The notes below the pieces were generated by a model. The model was given only the letters and a program-made list of their open reading frames with translations, did no database searches and was not told the origin of the DNA. 64,000 nt of DNA, taken from assembly GCA_937927915.1 (NCBI GenBank), contig CALGKB010000005.1:62001-126000 (forward strand). The letters are read 5' to 3'. A program made the position numbers and the translations under genes. Positions 49,710 through 61,500 of this stretch are shown here, in pieces. The stretch is from an uncultured Pseudanabaenaceae cyanobacterium (GTDB taxonomy: Bacteria > Cyanobacteriota > Cyanobacteriia > Pseudanabaenales > Pseudanabaenaceae). Positions within the stretch are counted from its first letter, which is position 1; every line of letters starts with the position of its first letter.

Positions 49710-49792
49710 GGGGGTATGGCGGAATGGTAGACGCTACGGACTTAAAATCCGTTGACCGCAAGGTCGTAAGGGTTCAAGTCCCTTTACCCCCA
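49710..49792 (+). tRNA. tRNA-Leu (anticodon TAA), intronless
   Basis: The 83 bases fold as a class II tRNA. The acceptor stem is GGGGGTA/TACCCCC, the anticodon stem CGGA/TCCG with loop CTTAAAA, and there is a long variable arm and a T arm AGGG-TTCAAGT-CCCT. The gene is continuous, with no group I intron between T34 and A35, where many cyanobacteria carry one. It marks the left border of the CRISPR island. Confidence 0.94.
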
Positions 49793-49899
49793 CTCCGGTT
49801 CATTTTATCCCATCTAGTCATCGAGGGCGAAAGTTGTCAGTAAAAGAGGACAAGTGAAAGCTAACCTCCCTACTGCCTCGGAGTCCAACGGAGACAGAT

Positions 49900-49940: not shown

Positions 49941-49967
49941 CCTCAGATACCATCAGGTGTTGAGCAC
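49941..49967 (+). repeat. Degenerate CRISPR repeat upstream of cas6
   Basis: The 27 bases align without gaps with positions 9-35 of the array repeat, with 22 identities. The terminal GTTGAGCAC is exact. In the array repeat the hairpin arms are GCC and GGC around GTAA. Here they read ACC and GGT around ATCA, so the outer pair is changed on both sides and pairing is kept. The first eight bases of the repeat are not conserved. This is what a leading pseudo-repeat of a crRNA-like regulator would retain. Confidence 0.72.
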
Positions 49968-50001
49968 TTTAGCTACTTTGTGCTCAGGTGGGTCAAAGTA
50001 G
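49961..50001 (+). other. Two overlapping hairpins after the degenerate repeat
   Basis: TGAGCAC (49961-49967), which is the end of the degenerate repeat, pairs perfectly with GTGCTCA (49980-49986). The overlapping CTACTTTG (49973-49980) pairs perfectly with CAAAGTAG (49994-50001). The two stems share base 49980 and are interleaved, so they could compete or form a pseudoknot. This supports a structured RNA in the cas6 leader rather than a chance repeat match. The rest of the 445-base gap before cas6 (49793-50237) shows no convincing gene. Confidence 0.55.
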
Positions 50002-50237
50002 AAGCTACAGGGGCTTGGGGAAAGACTTGGCAAAACTCCCCAGCCGTATACCTTTGATGCCGATAGGCGACCAATATACTCCTGTAGCTGCATCTAAAAA
50101 ATTTCCTATGTTTAGATACTTAGTGTTTGACATTTATATCCTTCGACCCTATCATATAGTTACGACCTCAGAAAACCTTTAGGTTCTAAGCATCCTCCAA
50201 CATCTTTTGAGAACTTTTAAGAAAGGTACGGATTTAT

Positions 50238-50870
50238 ATGACACCAAGTACTCAAACTATTGCTTCTACGTCTTTGTCAGAATTGCAGCTCATGGTAGAT
50301 GTTACATTTCCTATAATCAGTGGTAAGGTCATTCCTGCTGACCATGGTTACGCTTTACTCTCATCAATCACAAGATACATCCCCAGCATCAAGGAACACA
50401 CAGATATAAGCATCCTGACTGCTTCAGGCTTGAGGGATGGAACAGGCAAGATAGTACTGGCAGAATACTCTCGTTTCCTTTTTCGTTTGCCCGTCAGTAA
50501 AATTCCCCTGGTTTACAGTTTGGCAGGCGAAACTCTCAAACTAGGTATCCATGCAATTAGGTTAGGTATTCCCAGTATTAATCCCTTGAAAGTTTGTTCC
50601 AAACTGCGCTCACGTATTGTAACTATCAAGGGATACGACCAGCCAGATGCGTTCCTAGAAGCAGTTCGTAGACAGCTAGAAGGATTGACAATTCGAGGAG
50701 AAGTCTCTCTACCCCACAACGCCCGCAAGACAATTAAAATCAAGCGATTTTCTGTAGTAGGCTTTACCGTGGAAGTACGGAACTTGAGTGAAGAAGATTC
50801 CCTAAAATTACAAGCCTACGGCTTAGGCGGTAAAAGGCACATGGGTTGTGGCATTTTCCTGCCATTTTAA
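50238..50870 (+). CDS. cas6: CRISPR RNA endonuclease Cas6, MYXAN-type (Cmx6)
   Basis: The 210-residue protein is a RAMP-fold Cas6: the N-terminal HGYALLSSITRYIPSI and the C-terminal glycine-rich GLGGKRHMGCGIFLPF are typical of the MYXAN Cas6 family. It cuts the CRISPR transcript 3' of the repeat hairpin. It is the first gene of the cas operon, about 300 bases after the pseudo-repeat. cas3 follows 12 bases later. The catalytic residues of Cas6 families vary and I do not assign them. Confidence 0.88.
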   Translation: MTPSTQTIASTSLSELQLMVDVTFPIISGKVIPADHGYALLSSITRYIPSIKEHTDISILTASGLRDGTGKIVLAEYSRFLFRLPVSKIPLVYSLAGETLKLGIHAIRLGIPSINPLKVCSKLRSRIVTIKGYDQPDAFLEAVRRQLEGLTIRGEVSLPHNARKTIKIKRFSVVGFTVEVRNLSEEDSLKLQAYGLGGKRHMGCGIFLPF

Positions 50871-50882
50871 GGAGCGGTAATC

Positions 50883-53291
50883 ATGTTCAAGTATCCTTAT
50901 CCTTATCTATTGGCAAAAACTCTGCCCCCAGACAAACCAAAATATAAAAATCAACGCTGTGGGGCAATTTTTAGAGAGCATATCAACGCCGTAATGAAAT
51001 CGGCTGTGATTATTCTCGATCGCTTGGGAGAGGATTTATACAATCAATTTGGCTTTAAGGATATTTCCCATGACTATTTAAGAAATACAGTGATTTTAGG
51101 GGCATTTTTGCACGACTTGGGTAAATGCAGTGAGCATTTCCAAGAGATGGTCTATCTCAAATCAGATAGCATCACGCCAGAAGATAAACAAAAATTACAG
51201 AAAAAATGGAATGCTCACAGTAAAAAGCAAATGCTCCGCCATGAGGTCATTAGTGCCATTCTTGCCCTTACCCCTGAATTAAGAGGGTGGTTAGAGAATC
51301 CGCAAAAATACTGTCTAATAACTGCTATCTGTTCTGCTATGGGACATCATCTCAAATTAGGAATAGGAATAGATCATAAGCCTAATAGTTTAATCGCTGA
51401 TTTTCCCGATGGCACAGGTAGTGAATTGCGGTTATTTACTCACCATGAGGATTTTCATGAGGTTCTCAAAAGGGGTAAGAAGTATCTCGGTTTATCTGAT
51501 CCCCCTCAGAAATTACCAAAAGAACTGTGGCAGAAAGATGAACTAAAAGAGGCGATCGCTACTTTACAAGATGAATGCTTAGACTTCTCACGGAATTTGA
51601 CGGAAGAACAACGCCGTTTCATTGCTGTGGTCAAAGCATTGGTAATTTCCGCAGACTTAGCAGGTTCAGCCATCCCTGCTGTGAGTGATAATTCTCAACC
51701 CCTGTGGCAGTATTTGGAAAAATGGATTATTGAAGTATTGAATTTAACCCTAACCGAAGATGATTTGCAGAATTTAATCCATCAACGATTAGGTGAGAAG
51801 TCTTTGCGACCTTTTCAAGAGCAAATCGCCAATACACCGACCAGAGTAACTATAGTCAAAGCAGGGTGCGGTACAGGCAAAACGATCGGGGCTTACGCAT
51901 GGGCAAAGCAAAGAGCGATCGGGCGGAAACTATTCTTTTGCTATCCCACCACAGGTACAGCTTCCCAAGGCTACCTAGACTATGCCGCTGAAACGGAAAT
52001 AGAATCAGCACTGATGCACTCCCGCGCTTCCATTGATTTGGAAAAAATTCTCTCCGCTTGTGAAGATGATGATGCCGATGGCATAGACGATCGCTTAGAA
52101 GCCATGACCGCATGGCAAGCCAAGTTGATTGTCTGCACCGTGGATACGGTCCTAGGGCTGGTACAGAATAATCGTAAGCCATTATTTTCTTTTCCTGCGA
52201 TCGCCCAGGGAGCATTTGTTTTTGACGAAGTGCATGCCTTTGATGAGAAGTTATTTGGAGCACTACTCAGATTTTTGCAAACTTTTAGAGGTGCACCTAT
52301 TTTATTGATGAGTGCCAGTTTAAGCCCAGAACAGGAATCATCTATTTGTCGGGTAATTGAGGGCTTAGGAGAAACAGTAAATATTATTCAAGGGGAACAA
52401 AAATTAGAAATTATCCCCCGCTACTCTATGCACTTAGAAACCGACCTAAATCAGATTTGGGAACAGGTACAGAATGCATTAACTAGTAACCAAAAAGTTC
52501 TATGGGTAACTAACACGGTCAAAGATTGTATTTCTATTTATCGTCAAGCAGAAAAATTATTTAGCAATGTGTTTATTTATCACAGCCGCTATCGCTACAA
52601 AGACCGTTTAGAAAAACACAAACAGGTCATAACAGCATTCAAGGGCAATGATTCTTGCTTAGCGGTTACCACCCAAGTATGCGAAATGTCCCTTGATTTG
52701 AGTGCCGATTTACTGATTAGTCAGGTCGCGCCTGCATACGCTCTGATTCAACGCATGGGCAGACTAAATCGCTATGTCTATGAAGATGAACTTGGTCAGA
52801 TTAAGCTAGTATCTGGCAAAATTTGTCCCGCTATCTTTTATCCTAAAGATAAGCCTCTTCCTTATAGCGAAGAAGAAGTTGAAACAGGGCTTTTTTTGAT
52901 TGATCAACTAAAATCTAAACCAGAAATTTCTCAGCAGGATTTAGCCGAAATATCTGCACAGATGCAAGATAAAGCATGGGTGGAAAGTGCCTCGATTTGG
53001 TTAGATAAAACTTGGGAGACTTATCCAAAACCACTTAGGGAAGGAGGATATACAATGACTGTTATAATGGAAAGAGACCTAGAAACGATCAAACAAGTAT
53101 CAGACCAGCGATCGAAGCAGAAAAAGATTCCATTCCCTAAAGCTATGATGCAGGAGATTCAGCGATGGACATTACCAATCAAAGTTATGAAGAATTACAA
53201 AAGTTGGAAGCGATGGAAGTTCTATTATCGTGTACCTGATGAATGTATCAACTATTCTGAAATTACAGGCGGAGAAGAACTATGCAATTAG
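50883..53291 (+). CDS. cas3: CRISPR helicase/nuclease Cas3 (HD and DExH)
   Basis: The 802 residues fuse an HD nuclease and a superfamily 2 helicase. The HD site is AFLHDLGKCSEHF (77-78), with later histidines in MLRHEVISAILAL and MGHHLKLG. The helicase has Walker A GCGTGKTIGAYAW near residue 330, motif II FDEVHAFDEK near 448, motif III MSASLSP and motif VI QRMGRLNRY near 620. All catalytic motifs appear intact. Cas3 is recruited by Cascade to unwind and degrade target DNA. Its last ten bases overlap cas8. Confidence 0.94.
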   Translation: MFKYPYPYLLAKTLPPDKPKYKNQRCGAIFREHINAVMKSAVIILDRLGEDLYNQFGFKDISHDYLRNTVILGAFLHDLGKCSEHFQEMVYLKSDSITPEDKQKLQKKWNAHSKKQMLRHEVISAILALTPELRGWLENPQKYCLITAICSAMGHHLKLGIGIDHKPNSLIADFPDGTGSELRLFTHHEDFHEVLKRGKKYLGLSDPPQKLPKELWQKDELKEAIATLQDECLDFSRNLTEEQRRFIAVVKALVISADLAGSAIPAVSDNSQPLWQYLEKWIIEVLNLTLTEDDLQNLIHQRLGEKSLRPFQEQIANTPTRVTIVKAGCGTGKTIGAYAWAKQRAIGRKLFFCYPTTGTASQGYLDYAAETEIESALMHSRASIDLEKILSACEDDDADGIDDRLEAMTAWQAKLIVCTVDTVLGLVQNNRKPLFSFPAIAQGAFVFDEVHAFDEKLFGALLRFLQTFRGAPILLMSASLSPEQESSICRVIEGLGETVNIIQGEQKLEIIPRYSMHLETDLNQIWEQVQNALTSNQKVLWVTNTVKDCISIYRQAEKLFSNVFIYHSRYRYKDRLEKHKQVITAFKGNDSCLAVTTQVCEMSLDLSADLLISQVAPAYALIQRMGRLNRYVYEDELGQIKLVSGKICPAIFYPKDKPLPYSEEEVETGLFLIDQLKSKPEISQQDLAEISAQMQDKAWVESASIWLDKTWETYPKPLREGGYTMTVIMERDLETIKQVSDQRSKQKKIPFPKAMMQEIQRWTLPIKVMKNYKSWKRWKFYYRVPDECINYSEITGGEELCN

Positions 53292-54907
53292 AACAAATGA
53301 AAAAACATCAAACTGTTTTGAATTACCATCTGGGTGATCCCTATATGACCATGCTTCATCGGGCAGGTTTGGCAGGTCTCTACATGACCCTTGAGCAATT
53401 TGAGAAAGAGAAAATCACTCCCTTTGGTGGCTTCACTTGGCAGAAGAGCGATCGCTCCATTACTCTATCTTGGGAAGGAAACGATCGAGAGGTATTAGAC
53501 TGGTTGCTTAAAGAATCCTTCCAACTGCGAGATGGTCTAATCTATTTCCGAGCATTGGGAGATGTAGATATTCAGCCATTAGTAACTTTGCATCAGGGCA
53601 TACTAGGCTCATTTCTACAACATAACAGCACCCACAAATCCACTGGCAAACAATCTAAAAGTTTCATGCTAGAAGAAGGGAAGCCCGAACTAATCATAGA
53701 GTACAAGGCATTATCGACCTATTCCCATCAGGACTTCACCGAAAAATTATGTGATTCTAAAACAGGAAAATTGCTAGGAAAAACTGTAGCGATCGCTGGT
53801 TGGTTAAGCCCCGGTGCAGTAGTAAAGCACATTGCTTTTTCTGGTCAAACTGCCTTTGAGGAAACTGCCAGTTCTGCATTGTTATTATTATTTGCGCCCA
53901 TTGCTTGTTGTTTTTTTGGATTGCGTTCTAAACTCAAAGAGCAGAAAGCTCAATACGCTCTTGTTATTCCTGAAGTTACTAATTTATCTGACTACAGCTA
54001 CTATCGCAGAGAGTATTTGAACTTGGGCTTTAGAGACTTTTATGCTTCCAGTTTGGGTGATGCAGGCTTGAAGTTTTTAATTAGAGATAGCCTTGTCAAT
54101 AAAACCGGGGGCATTATCCGCAACCTCCGAATCAAAACCTGTCATGTGATTACACTAGGTAGTGTACCTTGGGCAGGGCAACAAAAGACCCGTACTGATG
54201 TTTATACAGTTTCAGCTAACGAAACTATCTGTACCAATTACTATGTTGCCTGTGATCATTTGAGCGATCGAGTGATTGATAAAAAAGACAACAGTTCCAG
54301 TTGGATTGCTCCCAGTTTTGCCAGAGAAATTATTGCCGATAATCTGGCAAGGGGTAAACCATGGTTTGCTGACTTGTCAGCCATAGTCAATAGTGGAACA
54401 CTATTTCAACAACTACTTTATGAAAGGGAGGGACTACACAAAATGATTAAAGATCAACGATTGCAATGGACCGATCAACAACGCTTATTTGTCCAAGCCT
54501 GTCATGAGGCAATTTCCAAAACATATGGTCAGTTATCTAGTAGAAATCAAAAAAATAAGGAAGATTCTACTCAAGACTCAGATATAAAATCTCGTTTTGA
54601 GAAAGTGAATGTGAAGTTTCGCACTGGTTTAGCAAGGTGTAAGAATGCCATTTCATTTCGTGAATTTATTACTAACTTCTGGGCTAAGGCTGGCTATATT
54701 CCTACATTACAAAATCACTGGGAAGAAGTCATGAAGTTAGTAATTAGTGATTGGAGGTCTGCTAGAGACCTAGCTTTGCTTGCTTTAGCAAGTTACAAGG
54801 GCAAGGAGAGTAAGCAACAATCTGATAATTCACCTGAACTTCCCAGTCAAGAAGAAACGCTTAGTAGTATCGGTACGATTGATGATGGATTTGACGAAGA
54901 GGAGTAA
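53282..54907 (+). CDS. cas8a1: Cascade large subunit, Cas8a1/Csx13-like (MYXAN type)
   Basis: The 541-residue protein lies where the Cascade large subunit is expected and begins NYHLGDPYMTMLHRAGLAGLYM, as in the MYXAN Cas8a1/Csx13 family. It likely recognises the PAM and may include an alternatively translated small subunit in its helical C-terminus (from about residue 395, MIKDQRLQWTDQQRLFVQACH). The tail is acidic (DDGFDEEE). Subtype naming is from memory; under newer schemes these systems fall near I-A/I-B. Its start overlaps cas3 by ten bases. Confidence 0.85.
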   Translation: MQLEQMKKHQTVLNYHLGDPYMTMLHRAGLAGLYMTLEQFEKEKITPFGGFTWQKSDRSITLSWEGNDREVLDWLLKESFQLRDGLIYFRALGDVDIQPLVTLHQGILGSFLQHNSTHKSTGKQSKSFMLEEGKPELIIEYKALSTYSHQDFTEKLCDSKTGKLLGKTVAIAGWLSPGAVVKHIAFSGQTAFEETASSALLLLFAPIACCFFGLRSKLKEQKAQYALVIPEVTNLSDYSYYRREYLNLGFRDFYASSLGDAGLKFLIRDSLVNKTGGIIRNLRIKTCHVITLGSVPWAGQQKTRTDVYTVSANETICTNYYVACDHLSDRVIDKKDNSSSWIAPSFAREIIADNLARGKPWFADLSAIVNSGTLFQQLLYEREGLHKMIKDQRLQWTDQQRLFVQACHEAISKTYGQLSSRNQKNKEDSTQDSDIKSRFEKVNVKFRTGLARCKNAISFREFITNFWAKAGYIPTLQNHWEEVMKLVISDWRSARDLALLALASYKGKESKQQSDNSPELPSQEETLSSIGTIDDGFDEEE

Positions 54908-54909
54908 CT

Positions 54910-54984
54910 ATGTATCAGTTTCCAGTAGTCATTGAAAAACATGAAGAGGGATACTATTCCTACTGCTCTGTCTTGGAGGGTTGA
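54910..54984 (+). pseudogene. N-terminal remnant of a HicB-type antitoxin
   Basis: A 24-codon frame reads MYQFPVVIEKHEEGYYSYCS then VLEG and TGA. This is the first strand-turn-strand of HicB (typically MxYxxxVIEKDEDGYYAYCPxLPGC), after which the frame ends exactly where the conserved PGC would occur. It begins two bases after the cas8 stop. No HicA toxin or rest of HicB follows. The downstream bases are repeat-like instead. Confidence 0.65.
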
Positions 54985-54999
54985 GTGATTCCTTTTCAC

Positions 55000-55082
55000 A
55001 TCACTTTCCTCTGATGACCAAATAAGTATTTGATGTGATGCAAGATTAAATTTACCTCAGATGCCCCTAGGCGACAGAACAC
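55000..55082 (+). repeat. Pair of degenerate CRISPR repeats between cas8 and cas7
   Basis: The first copy has CTTTCCTCTGATG at 55004-55016, identical to positions 5-17 of the array repeat, then diverges. The second copy, 55055-55082, reads CCTCAGATGCC, CCT, AGGCG and ends ACAC. It aligns with positions 9-35 with one inserted base and keeps the GCC/GGC stem. Equivalent points of the copies are 47 bases apart, against 70-75 in the array. TCACATCA (54996-55003) and TGATGTGA (55031-55038) also form an 8-bp inverted repeat around the first copy. The 216-base gap has no other gene. Confidence 0.65.
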
Positions 55083-55124
55083 AACTAACTTTCAATTCAA
55101 TTGCAACTTTACAGGAGAGAAATT

Positions 55125-56048
55125 ATGAGTTGGCATCTTTTTGGTAACATTTTGACCAGCTACGGCACTGCTGCTAACAATCGCGGTGAGAACGAAGGAA
55201 ATATCACCACCTTGCAGAAAATCCTTTGGCAGGGTGAGGTGCATTCCACTGTATCCGCCGAAGCAATTCGCTGGGCACTGCGCTACTACTGGCAGACCTG
55301 CGGACACTATGAAGTTAATCGCAGATGGAATGATTTCATTAACGATAATGAGTGGCAGAATGAAAATTTTGATGACACCCAATACATTGATGATGATGTT
55401 TTGGGGTTCATGCGGGCTGAGGCGGCAAAAGCTGAAGCCAATGATGAGGAAGAGCCTGCCGATGGCAAGAAGAAAAAGAAATCTCCTCCCAAGGGAACTG
55501 CCACAGTCAAGCGGGGTGTATTAGAAGTAACTCGTGCTATTTCTACTACTCCTTTTGCTGGGGATATTACTTTCAATGCCGCGAGTGGAGCAAAGGGTAG
55601 AACTTCTCTTTATGGTGCGGAAGTACACGCAACCCGCTATCAGTATGGCTTTGCCCTCACACCCAATCGTCTAAAAGTTCAATCCAGAATCCATGCTGTT
55701 CTTGATGGTTTAACATCCCTAGGAAAAGTAGGTGGGAATCACTCCCGCTTCTTATATGATTTTGCGCCTGATAGTATTATTCTGCGTTGGACACACGACT
55801 TTGCTCCCAGAATTCTCTATTGCTTTGTAGAGGAAGATGGCATGATTTCAGTTCCCGATCTGCTGAGAAGAATTGAGGCAGAAGACATTGATCCTCAAGA
55901 GCTATGGGTGGCTGGGGCAATTACCAACACTGACGATGGAGAAGAGTTAAAGGCAAGGGGTGTAAATCTCTTTGCAGGAATTAAAGAAGCTGTAACTGAT
56001 CTGAAGGCTAAAATCAATGAAGACCTTAATTTGAACCTAGAGGAGTAA
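55125..56048 (+). CDS. cas7: Cascade backbone subunit Cas7 (DevR/Cst2-like, MYXAN type)
   Basis: The ATG at 55125 (MSWHLFGNILTSYG) has AGGAGAG six bases upstream and gives 307 residues; the ATG-less extension upstream is rejected. It is a RAMP-type protein of the DevR family, with the N-terminal GENEGNITTLQKIL, SAEAIRWALRYYW and later GRTSLYGAEVHATRYQYGF. Several copies coat the crRNA. A charged, probably disordered loop at residues 98-127 contains EEEPADGKKKKKSPPKG. The gene lies between two toxin-antitoxin remnants. Confidence 0.9.
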   Translation: MSWHLFGNILTSYGTAANNRGENEGNITTLQKILWQGEVHSTVSAEAIRWALRYYWQTCGHYEVNRRWNDFINDNEWQNENFDDTQYIDDDVLGFMRAEAAKAEANDEEEPADGKKKKKSPPKGTATVKRGVLEVTRAISTTPFAGDITFNAASGAKGRTSLYGAEVHATRYQYGFALTPNRLKVQSRIHAVLDGLTSLGKVGGNHSRFLYDFAPDSIILRWTHDFAPRILYCFVEEDGMISVPDLLRRIEAEDIDPQELWVAGAITNTDDGEELKARGVNLFAGIKEAVTDLKAKINEDLNLNLEE

Positions 56049-56280: not shown

Positions 56281-56502
56281 CGACTGGAGATTTTGGGGGA
56301 AGCAGCGCGGCGGATTTCTGATAAAGCTCGTTCGGAAATCCCCGAAATTCCTTACTAGAAAATGATTGGCATGAGGAATGTACTTGTTCATCAATACTAT
56401 GAGATTGACTTGAATATTGTTTGGGATGTAATTCATCAAGAATTACCGAAATTATCATCTAGTCTTGAAAAAGAAATTGCTAGGAGGAAACTAAACCAAT
56501 GA
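56281..56502 (+). pseudogene. HepT-like HEPN toxin remnant with in-frame amber
   Basis: The frame reads RLEILGEAARRISDKAR, EIPEIPY, a TAG at 56356-56358, then KMIGMRNVLVHQYYEIDL and NIVWDVIHQEL to a TGA that overlaps the cas5 start (ATGA). This is the C-terminal two-thirds of a HepT (DUF86) HEPN protein. The RNase motif Rx4H (RNVLVH) is intact. The N-terminal helices are missing, and the amber falls where a tryptophan is usual. No active toxin would be made without suppression or internal initiation. Confidence 0.78.
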
Positions 56503-57122
56503 GTAAACTCTTTCCCTTATTAGTGGAAGTACCGATCGCTTGTTTTCGGCAGTCCCATGCCCGTGAATACGCAGAAACTTATCCTGTACCACCCCCTGCT
56601 ACAGTGTATGGCATGCTTTTATCTTGCGTGGGCGAAGTGAATCGTTATCAACATATTGGTGTAAAGTTAGCGATCGCTATGCTTTCTAGTCCTACTAAAT
56701 CTACTGTGATTAGAACTTTTCGCAGATTCAAGAAAAGAGAGATCAGCGACCCCACCAATGCCCGTCCCGACTTTCAAGAATTACTCACGGATACTAGGTT
56801 CATAGTGTGTGTTGATTCCAGTCAAGAGAAAAATTCACCAACTTTGCAGGAACGTCTAGAGAATGCTTTTACCCATCCAGAAACGATCGATCGATTTGGC
56901 GGATTATGCTTGGGAGAAAGTCGGGATTTAGTAAACTCAATTCAGAGATTTACTATTTCAACAGATGAGTATTATGAATGGCTCACCCAAGACCCAGATG
57001 GACTGCTAACATTGCCTTACTGGGTGGATCATGTAGGTTCTAGAGGGACGAAATGGCAAAGATATAGACTGGAACTGTCTAGTTTGAATCCCAGGGTATG
57101 GACACAAATTAAAACTGACTAA
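56499..57122 (+). CDS. cas5: Cascade subunit Cas5 (DevS, MYXAN type)
   Basis: The 207-residue RAMP protein begins LFPLLVEVPIACFRQSHAREYAETYPVPPPATVYGMLLSCVGE, matching the Cas5/DevS family that caps the 5' handle of the crRNA. IRTFRRFKK and RFGGLCLGESRDLV follow. Its ATG overlaps the stop of the HepT remnant by four bases, so translation once coupled to the toxin frame. The adaptation gene follows 33-72 bases later depending on its start. Confidence 0.9.
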   Translation: MSKLFPLLVEVPIACFRQSHAREYAETYPVPPPATVYGMLLSCVGEVNRYQHIGVKLAIAMLSSPTKSTVIRTFRRFKKREISDPTNARPDFQELLTDTRFIVCVDSSQEKNSPTLQERLENAFTHPETIDRFGGLCLGESRDLVNSIQRFTISTDEYYEWLTQDPDGLLTLPYWVDHVGSRGTKWQRYRLELSSLNPRVWTQIKTD

Positions 57123-57194
57123 TTTCTAGTTTGTTGAACTCTGCTGACGTCACAGATGGTTTATCCTTTGCTAACAATGCTTGAGGGAAATTGT

Positions 57195-58856
57195 ATGGTT
57201 TGCCTAACTTCATCTTCGCTTGATCTTGATACTATTCGTGTATCTTCTCTCCATGCTCTTGCTTATTGTGAACGGCTCTTCTTCTTAGAAGAGGTAGAAG
57301 AACTCTATACCCAGGATGCAGCTGTCTTTGCAGGTAGAAGACTCCATGTGCAAATTGGAAAGCAGGAAGGGGAAGAATATGAAGAACTTTTCTTGGAAAG
57401 CTCTGAACTTGGTTTAAGGGGCAAAGTTGATGTTCTTCGTACAATCAAAGGAGAATTAATTCCCTACGAACACAAACGGGGTAAGCCAGCTAGAGATGAC
57501 TCAAACAAACCAATTCCCTGGGATAGCGATCGGTTGCAAATTCTAGCATATGCCTACTTGATTGAATCTGCTCTAGAGCAAAAGGTAAGGGAAGGACGCA
57601 TTCGTTACCATGCCGATAATGTTTTGGTAAAGGTTCCGTTTGATGATAGTGGTAGAGAGGAAGTAAGACAGGCAATTCACAGGGCACGGGAGTTACGCAA
57701 GTCTCTCTTTCGTCCTCCTGTAACTTCCAATGAGCGTCTGTGTCTACGATGTTCTCTTGCTCCTGTGTGTCTGCCAGAGGAAGCCCGCCTAACACATAAC
57801 CGAGAGTGGCAACCTGTACGTCTTTTCCCTGAAGATGACAATCGTAGGATTATTCATATACTTGAACCTGGTACAAAAGTGGGCAAAGCAGGGGAACAAA
57901 TCAAGATTACGCAGCCAGAGGGTTTGACCGAGTTAGTGCCTTCCCAAGAGGTTTCTCAGATTGTACTGCATGGTTTTGTGCAGATTTCTACCCAAGCAGT
58001 TCATAGTTTGGTTGATAAAGAGATAGGTATCCATTTTATTTCTAGTGGGGGCAGGTATGTTGGTAGTTTGGATACTAGGAGCGGTAGTATTCAGAGACGG
58101 ATTCGTCAGTATCAGGCTCTCTCTGACCCAGACTTTTGCCTGTCTTTAGCTAAAAGACTTGTGTTTTGTCGGGCTGAGGGACAACGTAAGTTCTTAATGC
58201 GGGGTAGAAGAAACAAAACTACTTCCTTTGCCTGTCTTGATGAGTGTATAGACCAAATGCGTGATGTTATACAAAAAATTGATAGAGCAGATAAAATTGA
58301 CTCTCTGTTGGGCTATGAAGGAAATTTAGCAGCACTGTATTTCAAGGGGCTTTCTCATCTCCTTGTAGAACAAACAGACCCAGAAATGCACTTTGACGGT
58401 CGCAACCGTCGCCCCCCGACGGATAGGTTTAATGCTCTTCTGAGCTTTGGCTATACTCTCTTACTAAAAGATATGGTCAACGCAATCTTAGTTGTGGGGC
58501 TTGAACCTGCTTTGGGCTTTTATCACCAACCTCGCACTCAGGCTCCACCTCTTGCCCTTGACTTAATGGAAATTTTTCGTGTTCCTCTAGTAGACATGAT
58601 CGTCATATCTTCTATCAATCGCCAACAGTGGCATGTAAAGGAAGATTTTGAGGTAAGGGGAAATCAAGTGTGGCTAAGTGATGCAGGAAAGAGAAAGTTT
58701 GTCGCTTTGTATGAGAAACGCAAGGAAGAGTCTTGGAAACATCCTATCTTGGGATATTCTCTGACCTATCGGCGCTTGATGGAATTGGAGGTGCAGTTGC
58801 TGGAAAAAGAATGGAGCGGAGAAACTGGTTTATTCGCAAATCTTATCCTGAGGTAA
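57195..58856 (+). CDS. cas4-cas1: Cas4-Cas1 fusion protein (spacer acquisition)
   Basis: The ATG at 57195 is chosen for GAGGGA six bases upstream; an in-frame ATG at 57156 would add 13 residues. The N-terminal third is Cas4. It has iron-sulfur cysteines in AYCERLFFLEE and CLRCSLAPVC, and RecB-type nuclease motifs GKVDVL, IPYEHKRGKPA and DRLQILAYAYL. The rest is the Cas1 integrase with metal ligands in GYEGNLAALYF, GFYHQPRTQ and LALDLMEIFR. Fusion of Cas4 to Cas1 is typical of MYXAN and I-G type loci. Both active sites look complete, and the array's identical repeats fit an adaptation-competent locus. Confidence 0.93.
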   Translation: MVCLTSSSLDLDTIRVSSLHALAYCERLFFLEEVEELYTQDAAVFAGRRLHVQIGKQEGEEYEELFLESSELGLRGKVDVLRTIKGELIPYEHKRGKPARDDSNKPIPWDSDRLQILAYAYLIESALEQKVREGRIRYHADNVLVKVPFDDSGREEVRQAIHRARELRKSLFRPPVTSNERLCLRCSLAPVCLPEEARLTHNREWQPVRLFPEDDNRRIIHILEPGTKVGKAGEQIKITQPEGLTELVPSQEVSQIVLHGFVQISTQAVHSLVDKEIGIHFISSGGRYVGSLDTRSGSIQRRIRQYQALSDPDFCLSLAKRLVFCRAEGQRKFLMRGRRNKTTSFACLDECIDQMRDVIQKIDRADKIDSLLGYEGNLAALYFKGLSHLLVEQTDPEMHFDGRNRRPPTDRFNALLSFGYTLLLKDMVNAILVVGLEPALGFYHQPRTQAPPLALDLMEIFRVPLVDMIVISSINRQQWHVKEDFEVRGNQVWLSDAGKRKFVALYEKRKEESWKHPILGYSLTYRRLMELEVQLLEKEWSGETGLFANLILR

Positions 58857-58860
58857 CAGT

Positions 58861-59154
58861 ATGGCGGAGTCAAGAAACTTTTATCTGATTTGTTATGATA
58901 TTCGGGAGCCGAAACGGTGGCGTAAAGCTTACAAGTTGTTACAAGGCTACGGCGATAGACTGCAATACTCTGTTTTTCGTTGCTTGCTAACTGTACGCCA
59001 TCGGGAAAAGCTGCGTTGGGAACTAGAAAAAATTCTCACCCCAGAGGACAGCTTGTTGATTGCTGGTCTGTGCGATCGGTGCGTGCAAAGGGTAGTTGCC
59101 TGCAATCGTCCAGAATCTTGGTCAACACTGCCATCTGGTTACCAAATTTTTTAG
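58861..59154 (+). CDS. cas2: Cas2 endoribonuclease-fold adaptation protein
   Basis: The 97-residue protein shows the Cas2 pattern: NFYLICYDIREPKRWRKAYKLL with the conserved aspartate, then YGDRLQYSVFRCLL, and the basic C-terminal strand. It forms the core of the Cas1-Cas2 integrase. It starts four bases after cas4-cas1 and is the last cas gene before the array. Confidence 0.94.
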   Translation: MAESRNFYLICYDIREPKRWRKAYKLLQGYGDRLQYSVFRCLLTVRHREKLRWELEKILTPEDSLLIAGLCDRCVQRVVACNRPESWSTLPSGYQIF

Positions 59155-59398
59155 AGCATGGATCTGCGAATGCAGTTGAGGCATGTATCCAAATTCCTGT
59201 AGTTCACTTGCAGAGACTAGGTTTCCGCTGTTACAGTATTTCTGAGGTGCTTGAGTTTGCTAAATGGCTTATCGATAAGCATTGTAGACTGAGGATTGGT
59301 TGGGGCTGCCTAGTTTAGAAGTGTTCGGTCTAAGATTTAAGGGGGTGCTTGCAAAATTTGCCAGGAAGGCTTACCCTACAATAAGTACAGCAAGCGCT
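59155..59398 (+). promoter_or_regulatory. Probable CRISPR leader between cas2 and the array
   Basis: This 244-base non-coding stretch lies between cas2 and the first repeat. A -10-like TACAAT is at 59377-59382, 16 bases before the first repeat. The possible -35 words (TTGCAA at 59349 or TTGCCA at 59359) are not ideally spaced. If this is the leader, the array is transcribed on the plus strand with an 8-nt 5' handle TTGAGCAC. The short 68-base flank on the other side leads directly into a dead transposase. Confidence 0.5.
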
Positions 59399-60505
59399 GT
59401 TGCTTTCCTCTGATGCCGTAAGGCGTTGAGCACTCTTATCAAAGCTGCCCCCAGAAGCACGCTACGCTGTGTTGCTTTCCTCTGATGCCGTAAGGCGTTG
59501 AGCACAGGGAGACGCTCCTGAAAACACTAGTGCCCCCTCGGGGGGTTGCTTTCCTCTGATGCCGTAAGGCGTTGAGCACGAGAGTGATCTCGTACGGAGG
59601 CTCCCTTTGGATTACACGAGTTGCTTTCCTCTGATGCCGTAAGGCGTTGAGCACACCCTCGAATGGGGGGGGAACCAGTATCTCGGTGTAGGTTGCTTTC
59701 CTCTGATGCCGTAAGGCGTTGAGCACGCATTCGATCCCTCCATCAATACTAGGTTTGTAGACGGTTGCTTTCCTCTGATGCCGTAAGGCGTTGAGCACGC
59801 ATTCGATCCCTCCATCAATACTAGGTTTGTAGACGGTTGCTTTCCTCTGATGCCGTAAGGCGTTGAGCACAATAACAGAGGTTCACACTGTTAGCTAAGG
59901 AGGAAGGTTGCTTTCCTCTGATGCCGTAAGGCGTTGAGCACTACCCCTCTACAGGGTCGAGTTCCCGATCGGTGAGGGTTGCTTTCCTCTGATGCCGTAA
60001 GGCGTTGAGCACTAACTGGGCAATAAATCTCAGGGCGTGGTACTTCTGTTGCTTTCCTCTGATGCCGTAAGGCGTTGAGCACGCGACTGGGGGTCTAATG
60101 CCCGTTCTAACGTTGTGGGTTGCTTTCCTCTGATGCCGTAAGGCGTTGAGCACTTGGATAGGTGTCTACAATAGGTGATGACAACTTAGTTGCTTTCCTC
60201 TGATGCCGTAAGGCGTTGAGCACGAATTGTTGGATTTTCTCTCTGATACTGCCCATTATGTTGCTTTCCTCTGATGCCGTAAGGCGTTGAGCACGAATTG
60301 TTGGATTTTCTCTCTGATACTGCCCATTATGTTGCTTTCCTCTGATGCCGTAAGGCGTTGAGCACTTGCAGTGGAAGTAGGAGATGAAACTGTTATATTT
60401 GTTGCTTTCCTCTGATGCCGTAAGGCGTTGAGCACACCCAGAATCTGCGGTTTCCTGTTTCGTCTTGCGAGTTGCTTTCCTCTGATGCCGTAAGGCGTTG
60501 AGCAC
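59399..60505. CRISPR. CRISPR array, 16 identical 35-nt repeats and 15 spacers
   Basis: The repeat starts GTTGCTTTCCTCTGATGCC and ends GTAAGGCGTTGAGCAC, with a GCC/GGC hairpin. All 16 copies are identical (first at 59399-59433, last at 60471-60505). Spacers are 35-40 bases: 37, 39, 40, 37, 37, 37, 36, 36, 35, 36, 35, 36, 36, 35 and 35 from left to right. Spacers 5 and 6 (59727, 59799) are identical to each other, as are spacers 12 and 13 (60224, 60295). Direction is not certain. Leader position and the pseudo-repeat promoter favour the plus strand; the minus-strand repeat end AAAGCAAC also resembles many known handles. Confidence 0.97.
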
Positions 60506-60573
60506 GTCGACCAAAAGTGTTGAATCTTCGAACAAAACTTAACATTAAAGGTTAGATTTAACCTACCAGAGGC

Positions 60574-61500
60574 TCAAGTTTCAAGTGCATCTTCAATTTG
60601 CCAGCGTAGACGATAGGCTTCCTTGATTTCTTCGTCACTCATATTTTGCACATTAGTAACTACTCTATACTCAATGTTATCTTCTTCATTAAAAATTTGC
60701 ACCACCCGTACATTAGGATTGTCTGGATTGAGTTTCATGTTATTTCTAATCCGTACAATAAACAATGTATTTCTATTGCATATTTCATCGATTAATTTTC
60801 AAGAGGCAAAACGTCTATCCATTATGCCAAAGGCATCCTCTGGTATCGTTCCGATGACAAGGTTACCAATTTTTTAGTCATTAGTTTGCCCAAAAGTAAT
60901 TATCTCATCACCAATGTTACCTGCATTTACATCAAAGCCAAGAGACAGTTTTACTTGGTATACTTGCTGTTGCCAAAATAGTTTACTTGTTAAAGTTATG
61001 ATAGTAGAATCCAGAGGAAATAAATGCTTAAACTCTCCATAGTTTTGTCTTTTCAGCCGCTGTTGCAATTCTCTTAAGATGTGTTGCAATAGTTCAGTAC
61101 TACGATGCTTAAAGGCTTTAGAAAAGGTAAATATATCCACCTTAAAGCTGAGATGATTTAAGAGAAAGAATAAGCCCCTCATTGTAAAGACTCTTGCATC
61201 TAAAATGAACTGTATCCAGAGGAGAACAAAGAGTTGAGAATGCAAAACAGGATAATCATTTTGGGGTAGAAGTTTTAGCAAGGGCTTGATAAGTTGCCGC
61301 AGTTGTTTTAACGTAAACTCAATGCTATTTCTCAGAGCTAAAATACTATTTCTGGCTCCTTTTTTTCTACCTCTTTCCTGACATTCAACACTTCTGCCAC
61401 TCCACATACTCATCAGGAGCAATGCCACCATAAGTAGAATGGCAACTGTCGGCATGGGAGGGAGCGGTAGTTTCTCAATATAAATTGGACAAACAGACAT
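60574..61500 (-). pseudogene. IS4-family transposase remnant
   Basis: One minus-strand frame of 309 codons is interrupted by TAA at 60874-60876 and TGA at 60799-60801. The parts encode an IS4-type DDE transposase: LFPLDSTIITLTSKLFW with the second catalytic aspartate, and AYRLRWQIEDALE, the Y(2)R(3)E part of the YREK signature. The frame stops just before the expected lysine, so the C-terminus is lost too. No terminal inverted repeats were recognised. It abuts the right end of the CRISPR array by 68 bases. Confidence 0.82.

What the first reader, a model, noticed from the sequence alone, without database searches (positions are those of the whole stretch)
54985..55124. Mini-CRISPR-like pair of pseudo-repeats inside the cas operon between cas8 and cas7
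Directly seen: one copy has a 13-base exact match to the repeat (CTTTCCTCTGATG); the second matches most of positions 9-35 with the GCC/GGC stem kept. Their spacing is 47 bases, shorter than the 70-75 of the array, and an 8-bp inverted repeat surrounds the first. Known: the CreA antitoxin RNA is a pseudo-repeat/pseudo-spacer unit placed among cas genes. Inference: this may be a CreA-like element, or a fossil of an array fragment.
Basis: partly seen in the sequence, partly recalled or inferred. Interest (0 to 1): 0.85.

Follow-up and report, generated by a model that had tools for sequence, protein, structure and literature searches.

The report
Cas6-type hairpins punctuating a cas operon
A CRISPR repeat-like hairpin sits just in front of cas7 in this bacterium's immune operon and recurs at the same gene junctions in distant relatives, probably as a place where the repeat-cutting enzyme Cas6 acts on the operon's own messenger RNA, while a separate guide RNA at the front of the operon appears to switch the operon's promoter off.

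Summary
Both pseudo-repeats are real. The 13-mer CTTTCCTCTGATG occurs in this 2.4-Mb genome only in the array and at 55004. The second copy (55055-55073) is one of three exact core matches outside the array. They are not a mini-CRISPR. The first copy lacks stem and handle. The second lacks the TTGAGCAC handle, and the sequence behind it has no target. A CreA-like guide is therefore not supported here.

The second copy recurs just before cas7 in distant relatives. The same Cas6-type hairpin stands alone before cas4-cas1 in 28 of 31 cyanobacterial loci and in the cas6 leader, nearly always on the sense strand. I read these as Cas6 binding or cutting sites in the polycistronic cas mRNA. This is inferred, not shown.

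A true CreR-type element lies elsewhere, upstream of cas6 (49941-50126). An intact handle is followed by a pseudo-spacer matching a promoter target beside an ATG PAM. Mismatches fall mainly at positions 6 and 12. This holds in 23 of 25 loci, with guide and target covarying.

Stand-alone repeats and mini-arrays in cas loci are already described, so I call this a new variant of a known kind. The main survey could not be read.

The parts
55055..55073 (+). psiR4: stand-alone Cas6-type repeat core (CCTCAGATGCCCCTAGGCG) in the leader of cas7, handle degenerate (ACAGAACAC)
55004..55016 (+). partial repeat (CTTTCCTCTGATG): 5' half of the host's own repeat, without stem or handle; no counterpart seen in relatives; probable fossil
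54996..55038 (+). 8-bp inverted repeat TCACATCA/TGATGTGA around the partial repeat
   Evidence: no better than shuffles
55132..55138 (+). GGCATCT in cas7 codons 3-5, complementary to AGATGCC of psiR4 (55059-55065); possible alternative pairing over the cas7 start, with UUACC 55052-55056 / GGUAA 55143-55147
   Evidence: overall fold not significant (z 0.17)
54910..54984 (+). 24-codon ORF MYQFPVVIEKHEEGYYSYCSVLEG, probably the remnant of a HicB antitoxin gene
   Evidence: best plasmid match is an annotated HicB antitoxin, 58% identity, E 0.2; no Pfam hit
49941..49967 (+). psiR1 of the CreR-like element, intact 8-nt handle TTGAGCAC, stem ACC/GGT
   Evidence: (35.6 bits)
49968..50042 (+). pseudo-spacer; first 16 nt TTTAGCTACTTTGTGC guide to the cas promoter
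50051..50069 (+). psiR2 of the CreR-like element (stem kept, handle lost)
50108..50126 (+). PAM ATG plus protospacer start TTTAGATACTTAGTGT; match interrupted only at spacer positions 6, 12 and 16
50127..50155 (+). promoter of the cas operon: TTGACA, 17 nt, TATCAT
   Evidence: 11 of 12
50166..50191 (+). psiR3 (degenerate, stem ACC/GGT) in the leader of cas6
50238..50870 (+). cas6 (Cmx6, TIGR02807)
50883..53291 (+). cas3
53282..54907 (+). cas8 (Cmx1/Csx13)
55125..56048 (+). cas7 (Cst2/DevR)
56499..57122 (+). cas5 (Cmx5/DevS)
57156..58856 (+). cas4-cas1 fusion
58861..59154 (+). cas2
59398..60508 (+). CRISPR array, 16 repeats GTTGCTTTCCTCTGATGCCGTAAGGCGTTGAGCAC

Best explanation
The conserved part of the finding (55055-55073, psiR4) is a stand-alone Cas6-recognition hairpin in the untranslated leader of cas7 within the polycistronic cas mRNA. 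It is one of a series: psiR3 before cas6, psiR4 before cas7 and, in relatives, psiR5 before cas4-cas1. Free Cas6 most likely binds and cuts the mRNA at the 3' base of the hairpin. That would separate the modules cas6-cas3-cas8, cas7-cas5 and cas4-cas1-cas2 and tune their expression post-transcriptionally, in the way some ribonucleases act on their own leaders. It is not a guide RNA, because the 8-nt handle is lost. The neighbouring partial repeat (55004) is most likely a non-functional fragment. Separately, the operon carries a CreR-type guide unit upstream of cas6 that should direct Cascade to its own promoter. Shown here: sequence, position, orientation, conservation and absence of a target. 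Inferred: Cas6 binding, Cas6 cutting and the effect on expression.
For: The relatives' gaps share psiR4 28-53 nt before the cas7 start (this window, L029, L048, L049, L063, L099; also L035, L054 and degenerate L055, L056, L069) and 3 nt before it in three archaeal MAG loci (L086, L087, L102). PWM scan of 72 loci: sense-strand hits per kb are 0.009 in cas coding sequence against 1.5 (cas8|cas7), 2.6 (cas5|cas4-1) and 1.3 (upstream of cas6); antisense hit counts there are 0, 1 and 5. psiR5 is present in 28 of 31 cyanobacterial loci with that junction. Handle identity to TTGAGCAC is 0.39 (psiR4) and 0.46 (psiR5) against 0.94-0.95 in array repeats and psiR1, while the stem is kept. psiR4 cores are 14-17/19 identical between this genome and L029, L048, L049, L063 and L099, where fourfold sites are only 26-43% identical and upstream control windows match 0-6/19. 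Downstream sequence is not a guide: 0/9 psiR4 and 0/42 psiR5 have a target better than all shuffles. Cargo genes lie upstream of the proximal hairpin, so the hairpin stays with the following cas gene. psiR5 can pair with an anti-repeat beside the cas4-cas1 start in many species: 17 of 32 psiR5 elements have an energy in the best 10 of 200 shuffles, and own pairs beat cross-species pairs, p = 67/20000.
Against: No RNA data. psiR4 is patchy: most Nostocales loci and the I-B2 transposon loci lack it. The hairpins were found with a model of the core, so 'core kept, handle lost' is partly selected for; a handle-first scan found no extra psiR4 but several psiR5 with near-intact handles. Stem columns vary too little to show compensatory change beyond column composition. 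The psiR4 of this window scores only 9.3 bits in the covariance model (E 0.36). The predicted psiR4/cas7-start pairing is not better than shuffles. Intact arrays occur at the cas5|cas4-1 junction in L058, L061 and L091, so some hairpins could descend from arrays. This window itself lacks psiR5.
Confidence: 0.5

Rival explanations
1. Both pseudo-repeats are fossils of a former CRISPR array or of stray repeat copies between cas8 and cas7, without present function.
For: The first copy is a fragment identical to the host's own repeat including its variable CTTT. The gap also holds a probable HicB remnant. Real arrays sit at another junction in L058, L061 and L091.
Against: The second copy is conserved in place, strand and distance to cas7 over saturated divergence, and the three closest carriers share a non-repeat sequence after the stem (9/11 and 7/11 identical to this window). 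The same element recurs at other junctions, almost always on the sense strand.
Confidence: 0.28
2. The pair is a CreA/CreR-like guide RNA.
For: Two repeat-like sequences near each other inside a cas operon; a true CreR-type unit exists upstream of cas6 in the same operon.
Against: No handle, no stem in the first copy, about 12 nt between the copies, no target beside ATG (0/9), no counterpart of the first copy in relatives.
Confidence: 0.05
3. The stand-alone repeats are DNA-level module boundaries: homologous recombination between repeats shuffles cas modules and cargo (toxin-antitoxin genes), and the repeats persist for that reason.
For: Hairpins lie at module borders and sometimes flank cargo (pairs in L040, L041, L047, L052); adaptation and effector modules are known to shuffle (own knowledge).
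Against: Does not explain the loss of the handle with the stem kept, the fixed short distance to the next start codon, or the anti-repeat at the cas4-cas1 start.
Confidence: 0.1

Closest known systems
CreA / CreR crRNA-like RNAs and stand-alone repeats or mini-arrays in cas loci (Cheng 2021 PMC8501985; review PMC12737573; Shmakov 2023, NAR gkad495, not held)
   Same: Degenerate repeats that keep the Cas6-critical part, inside cas loci. The unit upstream of cas6 also has an intact handle, a second pseudo-repeat and a spacer partially matching the cas promoter.
   Different: The element of the finding is a single hairpin without handle or target, placed in an mRNA leader and repeated at module borders.
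Solitary repeat units / RNA anti-CRISPRs (Racr; PMC10651486)
   Same: Single repeat that could occupy Cas6.
   Different: Racrs are phage- or plasmid-borne and inhibit the host's system; here the repeats belong to the system's own operon.
Ribonuclease leaders under autocontrol (RNase III on its own leader, RNase E on its own leader; own knowledge)
   Same: A processing enzyme acts on a hairpin in the leader of its own operon.
   Different: The enzyme would be Cas6 and the hairpin a copy of a CRISPR repeat; no experiment yet.

Membership tests
CreA/CreR (element of the finding, 54985-55124) | intact 8-nt handle after a Cas6 stem | tested here: not met
   first copy has no stem; second copy continues ACAGAACAC instead of TTGAGCAC
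CreA/CreR (element of the finding, 54985-55124) | pseudo-spacer partially complementary to a promoter, beside a PAM | tested here: not met
   0 of 9 cas8|cas7 elements beat 40 shuffles
CreR (element upstream of cas6, 49941-50126) | two degenerate repeats, the first with an intact handle | tested here: met
CreR (element upstream of cas6, 49941-50126) | guide matches the cas promoter beside the PAM | tested here: met
   23 of 25 loci, PAM ATG, own 12.9 vs cross 6.7 of 14, permutation 0/20000; ATG is the PAM reported for I-B2 PmcCAST (PMC12719977)
CreR (element upstream of cas6, 49941-50126) | crRNA-like small RNA and Cascade-dependent repression | not testable with these tools
   no RNA data
CreTA | small RNA toxin repressed by CreA | not tested
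   no search for a CreT was made
CRISPR array | near-identical repeats at regular spacing of 70-75 | tested here: not met
   spacing 47, copies unlike each other
Cas6 processing site in mRNA | repeat-like stem of the host's Cas6 type on the transcribed strand | tested here: met
   no promoter-like site in 54700-55124 and one weak match inside cas7, so cas7 probably shares the operon transcript
Cas6 processing site in mRNA | binding and cleavage by Cas6 | not testable with these tools
   needs biochemistry or 5'-end mapping

The most novel reading that the evidence does not exclude
The leader hairpins are Cas6-responsive RNA switches. Without Cas6 the pseudo-repeat pairs with an anti-repeat at the next start codon (before cas4-cas1 in many cyanobacteria; codons 3-5 of cas7 in this clade, where Cas7 carries a clade-specific W3) and blocks translation. 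Cas6 binding or cutting at the hairpin frees the start codon. The operon would thus be set twice by its own guide machinery: transcription by CreR-Cascade and translation by free Cas6.
Probability: 0.2. Interest if true: 0.85.

Novelty: new variant of a known kind. Interest (0 to 1): 0.62.

Why it matters
If Cas6 cuts or binds its own operon's mRNA at repeat-like leaders, crRNA-processing capacity would be coupled directly to the supply of Cas7 (needed in several copies per complex) and of the adaptation genes, without any extra regulator. The guide/target pairs upstream of cas6 also bear on an open question: Cas7/DevR of this subtype is named an 'autoregulator', and the mechanism by which Myxococcus DevTRS represses its own operon is stated to be unknown (PMC8616872). 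A promoter-matching pseudo-spacer with mismatches mainly at flipped-out positions is the kind of partial match that a search for perfect spacers would miss.

Tried and rejected
A first scan of genome contigs with the single Cas8 protein found nothing; the Cas7 alignment worked. Guide targets for the cas8|cas7 and cas5|cas4-1 elements: none. Phage and plasmid matches to relatives' spacers, as an independent PAM test: none. Rfam: only the tRNA. Stem covariation within psiR4/psiR5 beyond column composition: not significant. Stability of the psiR4-cas7 fold against shuffles: not significant. HicB remnant by Pfam: no hit, the peptide is only 24 aa. Myxococcaceae genomes near L101 gave no clear second dev-type locus to test. 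A promoter inside the cas8|cas7 gap: none found before cas7. Shmakov et al. 2023 was not held. Literature searches for Cas6 sites in cas mRNAs found none described, but the library is incomplete.

Full report
WHAT THE LOCUS IS. The window carries a complete subtype I-B operon of the MYXAN variant: cas6/cmx6, cas3, cas8/cmx1, cas7/DevR, cas5/DevS, cas4-cas1, cas2 and a 16-repeat array. The genome is a 2.4-Mb assembly and its relatives are cyanobacteria. The + strand is the crRNA strand: the repeat has a GCC-GTAA-GGC hairpin followed by the 8-nt handle TTGAGCAC (and reading of the sequence).

CHECKING THE OBSERVATION. CTTTCCTCTGATG at 55004-55016 is found nowhere else in the genome except in the array. 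CCTCAGATGCCCCTAGGCG at 55055-55073 is one of three exact matches to the core pattern CCTNNGATGCCNNNAGGCG outside the array in the whole genome; the others are 50051 in this window and one solitary repeat on another contig. Neither is expected by chance (0 of 3000 shuffles each). The 47-base spacing and the 8-bp inverted repeat are also real, though the latter's fold is ordinary.

WHAT IT IS NOT. The first copy has no stem and no handle. The second has the stem but not the handle. Nothing downstream of the second copy, or of its equivalents in eight relatives, matches a site beside an ATG PAM better than shuffled sequence does. A crRNA-like or CreA-like product is therefore unlikely, and the pair is not a regular mini-array.

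RELATIVES. I compared 72 loci (64 named loci plus genome neighbours). Relatives have the second element in the same place: 28-53 nt before the cas7 start in L029, L048, L049, L063 and L099, similar or degenerate versions in L035, L054, L055, L056 and L069, and 3 nt before it in three archaeal MAG loci. I saw no counterpart of the first element. Between this genome and its relatives fourfold-degenerate sites are saturated (26-43% identical), while the cores remain 14-17 of 19 identical. The three closest carriers also share a tail after the stem (nnArAACAnAA) that differs from the true handle. That argues for maintained descent rather than recent stray copies, at least in this clade.

A SERIES OF HAIRPINS. 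The same element stands alone before cas4-cas1 in 28 of 31 cyanobacterial loci, in the leader of cas6, and in a few Nostocales between cas6 and cas3. Sense-strand density at these junctions is 1.3 to 2.6 per kb, against 0.009 per kb inside cas genes; antisense density is near zero. I-B2 transposon loci, which lack cas3 and the adaptation genes, have none at their cas junctions. The handle is lost at these sites (identity 0.39-0.46 for psiR4 and psiR5) but kept in array repeats and in psiR1 (0.94-0.95). What remains is what Cas6 needs, not what Cascade loading needs. One caveat is that the search model covers the core only, which favours this result; a handle-first scan nevertheless found no further cas8|cas7 element.

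MOST LIKELY MECHANISM. I infer that Cas6 binds and cuts the polycistronic mRNA at these leaders. No promoter-like site precedes cas7 within the gap, so cas7 probably lies on the operon transcript. Cutting would give cas7-cas5 and cas4-cas1-cas2 their own 5' ends and let free Cas6 sense how many repeats need processing. Supporting a regulatory role, the cas4-cas1 hairpin can pair with an anti-repeat next to the start codon: 17 of 32 elements lie in the best 10 of 200 shuffles, and own pairs are more stable than cross-species pairs, p about 0.003. In this window the analogous partner would be GGCATCT in cas7 codons 3-5. It exists because Cas7 has W at position 3 only in this genome, L029 and L048, but the fold is not better than shuffles, so I treat it as a lead.

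THE REAL CreR-LIKE ELEMENT. Upstream of cas6, psiR1 (49941-49967, handle intact), a pseudo-spacer and psiR2 (50051-50069) precede a strong promoter (TTGACA-17-TATCAT at 50127-50155). The first 16 nt of the pseudo-spacer, TTTAGCTACTTTGTGC, match TTTAGATACTTAGTGT beside ATG at 50108-50126, with mismatches at 6, 12 and 16. In 23 of 25 loci with such a handle the same relation holds. The mismatch counts over spacer positions 1-16 are 1,0,0,0,2,19,0,0,6,1,1,17,2,1,6,5. Positions 6 and 12 are those flipped out of the guide/target duplex in type I Cascade (own knowledge). The search masked positions 6 and 12 when ranking targets, so their high mismatch counts were allowed but not forced. Own pairs match 12.9 of 14 unmasked positions against 6.7 for cross-species pairs (0 of 20000 permutations). 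ATG is the PAM reported for the related I-B2 transposon PmcCAST (PMC12719977). This is strong evidence for a guide that directs Cascade to the operon's own promoter, as CreR does (PMC12737573).

COMPARISON AND NOVELTY. CreA genes with two degenerate repeats (PMC8501985), CreR (PMC12737573) and phage solitary repeats (PMC10651486) are known. A survey of stand-alone repeats in cas loci (Shmakov 2023) is cited but could not be read and may already list some of these sites. The upstream unit is therefore a new member of the CreR kind. The leader hairpins without handle or target are, as far as I could find, a variant without a described function.

VERDICT. Observation real, pairing not. The CreA-like interpretation is misplaced by 5 kb. 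Conserved Cas6-type leader hairpin: confidence 0.5 for a Cas6 site in the mRNA, 0.28 for a relic.

Noticed in passing
54910-54984: Tiny ORF after cas8 (MYQFPVVIEKHEEGYYSYCSVLEG) resembles the N-terminus of a HicB antitoxin, so a toxin-antitoxin gene may once have sat in this gap.
   Followed up: partly
L048:9291-9931: Between cas8 and the cas7 leader hairpin lie two small adjacent genes (99 and 112 aa) that look like a toxin-antitoxin pair; L029 has broken versions. Family not confirmed by a search.
   Followed up: partly
L058:11852-13589, L061:11955-13001, L091:11857-12318: Real CRISPR arrays lie between cas5 and cas4-cas1 in these Calothrix-type genomes.
   Followed up: no
L086:721, L087:6827, L102:3354: In three archaeal MAG loci (two titled Nitrososphaera/Nitrososphaerota) the repeat-like stem ends 3 nt before the cas7 ATG, so a Cas6 cut would leave a nearly leaderless mRNA.
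   Followed up: no
L108:5592-5610 (genome contig C9:137591-137609, minus strand): A solitary full repeat core (CCTCTGATGCCGTAAGGCGTTGAGCAA) lies alone on another contig.
   Followed up: partly
60874-61500 and L108:6306-6578: Similar transposase-like fragments lie next to the CRISPR array and near the solitary repeat on contig C9.
   Followed up: no
59691-59834 and 60188-60330: Two spacers of the array are present twice in tandem (repeat-spacer duplications).
   Followed up: no
57123-57155: This genome lacks the otherwise near-universal hairpin before cas4-cas1; the gap is only 33 nt.
   Followed up: yes
49710-49793: A tRNA-Leu(UAA) gene lies directly upstream of the cas operon and its guide element.
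   Followed up: no
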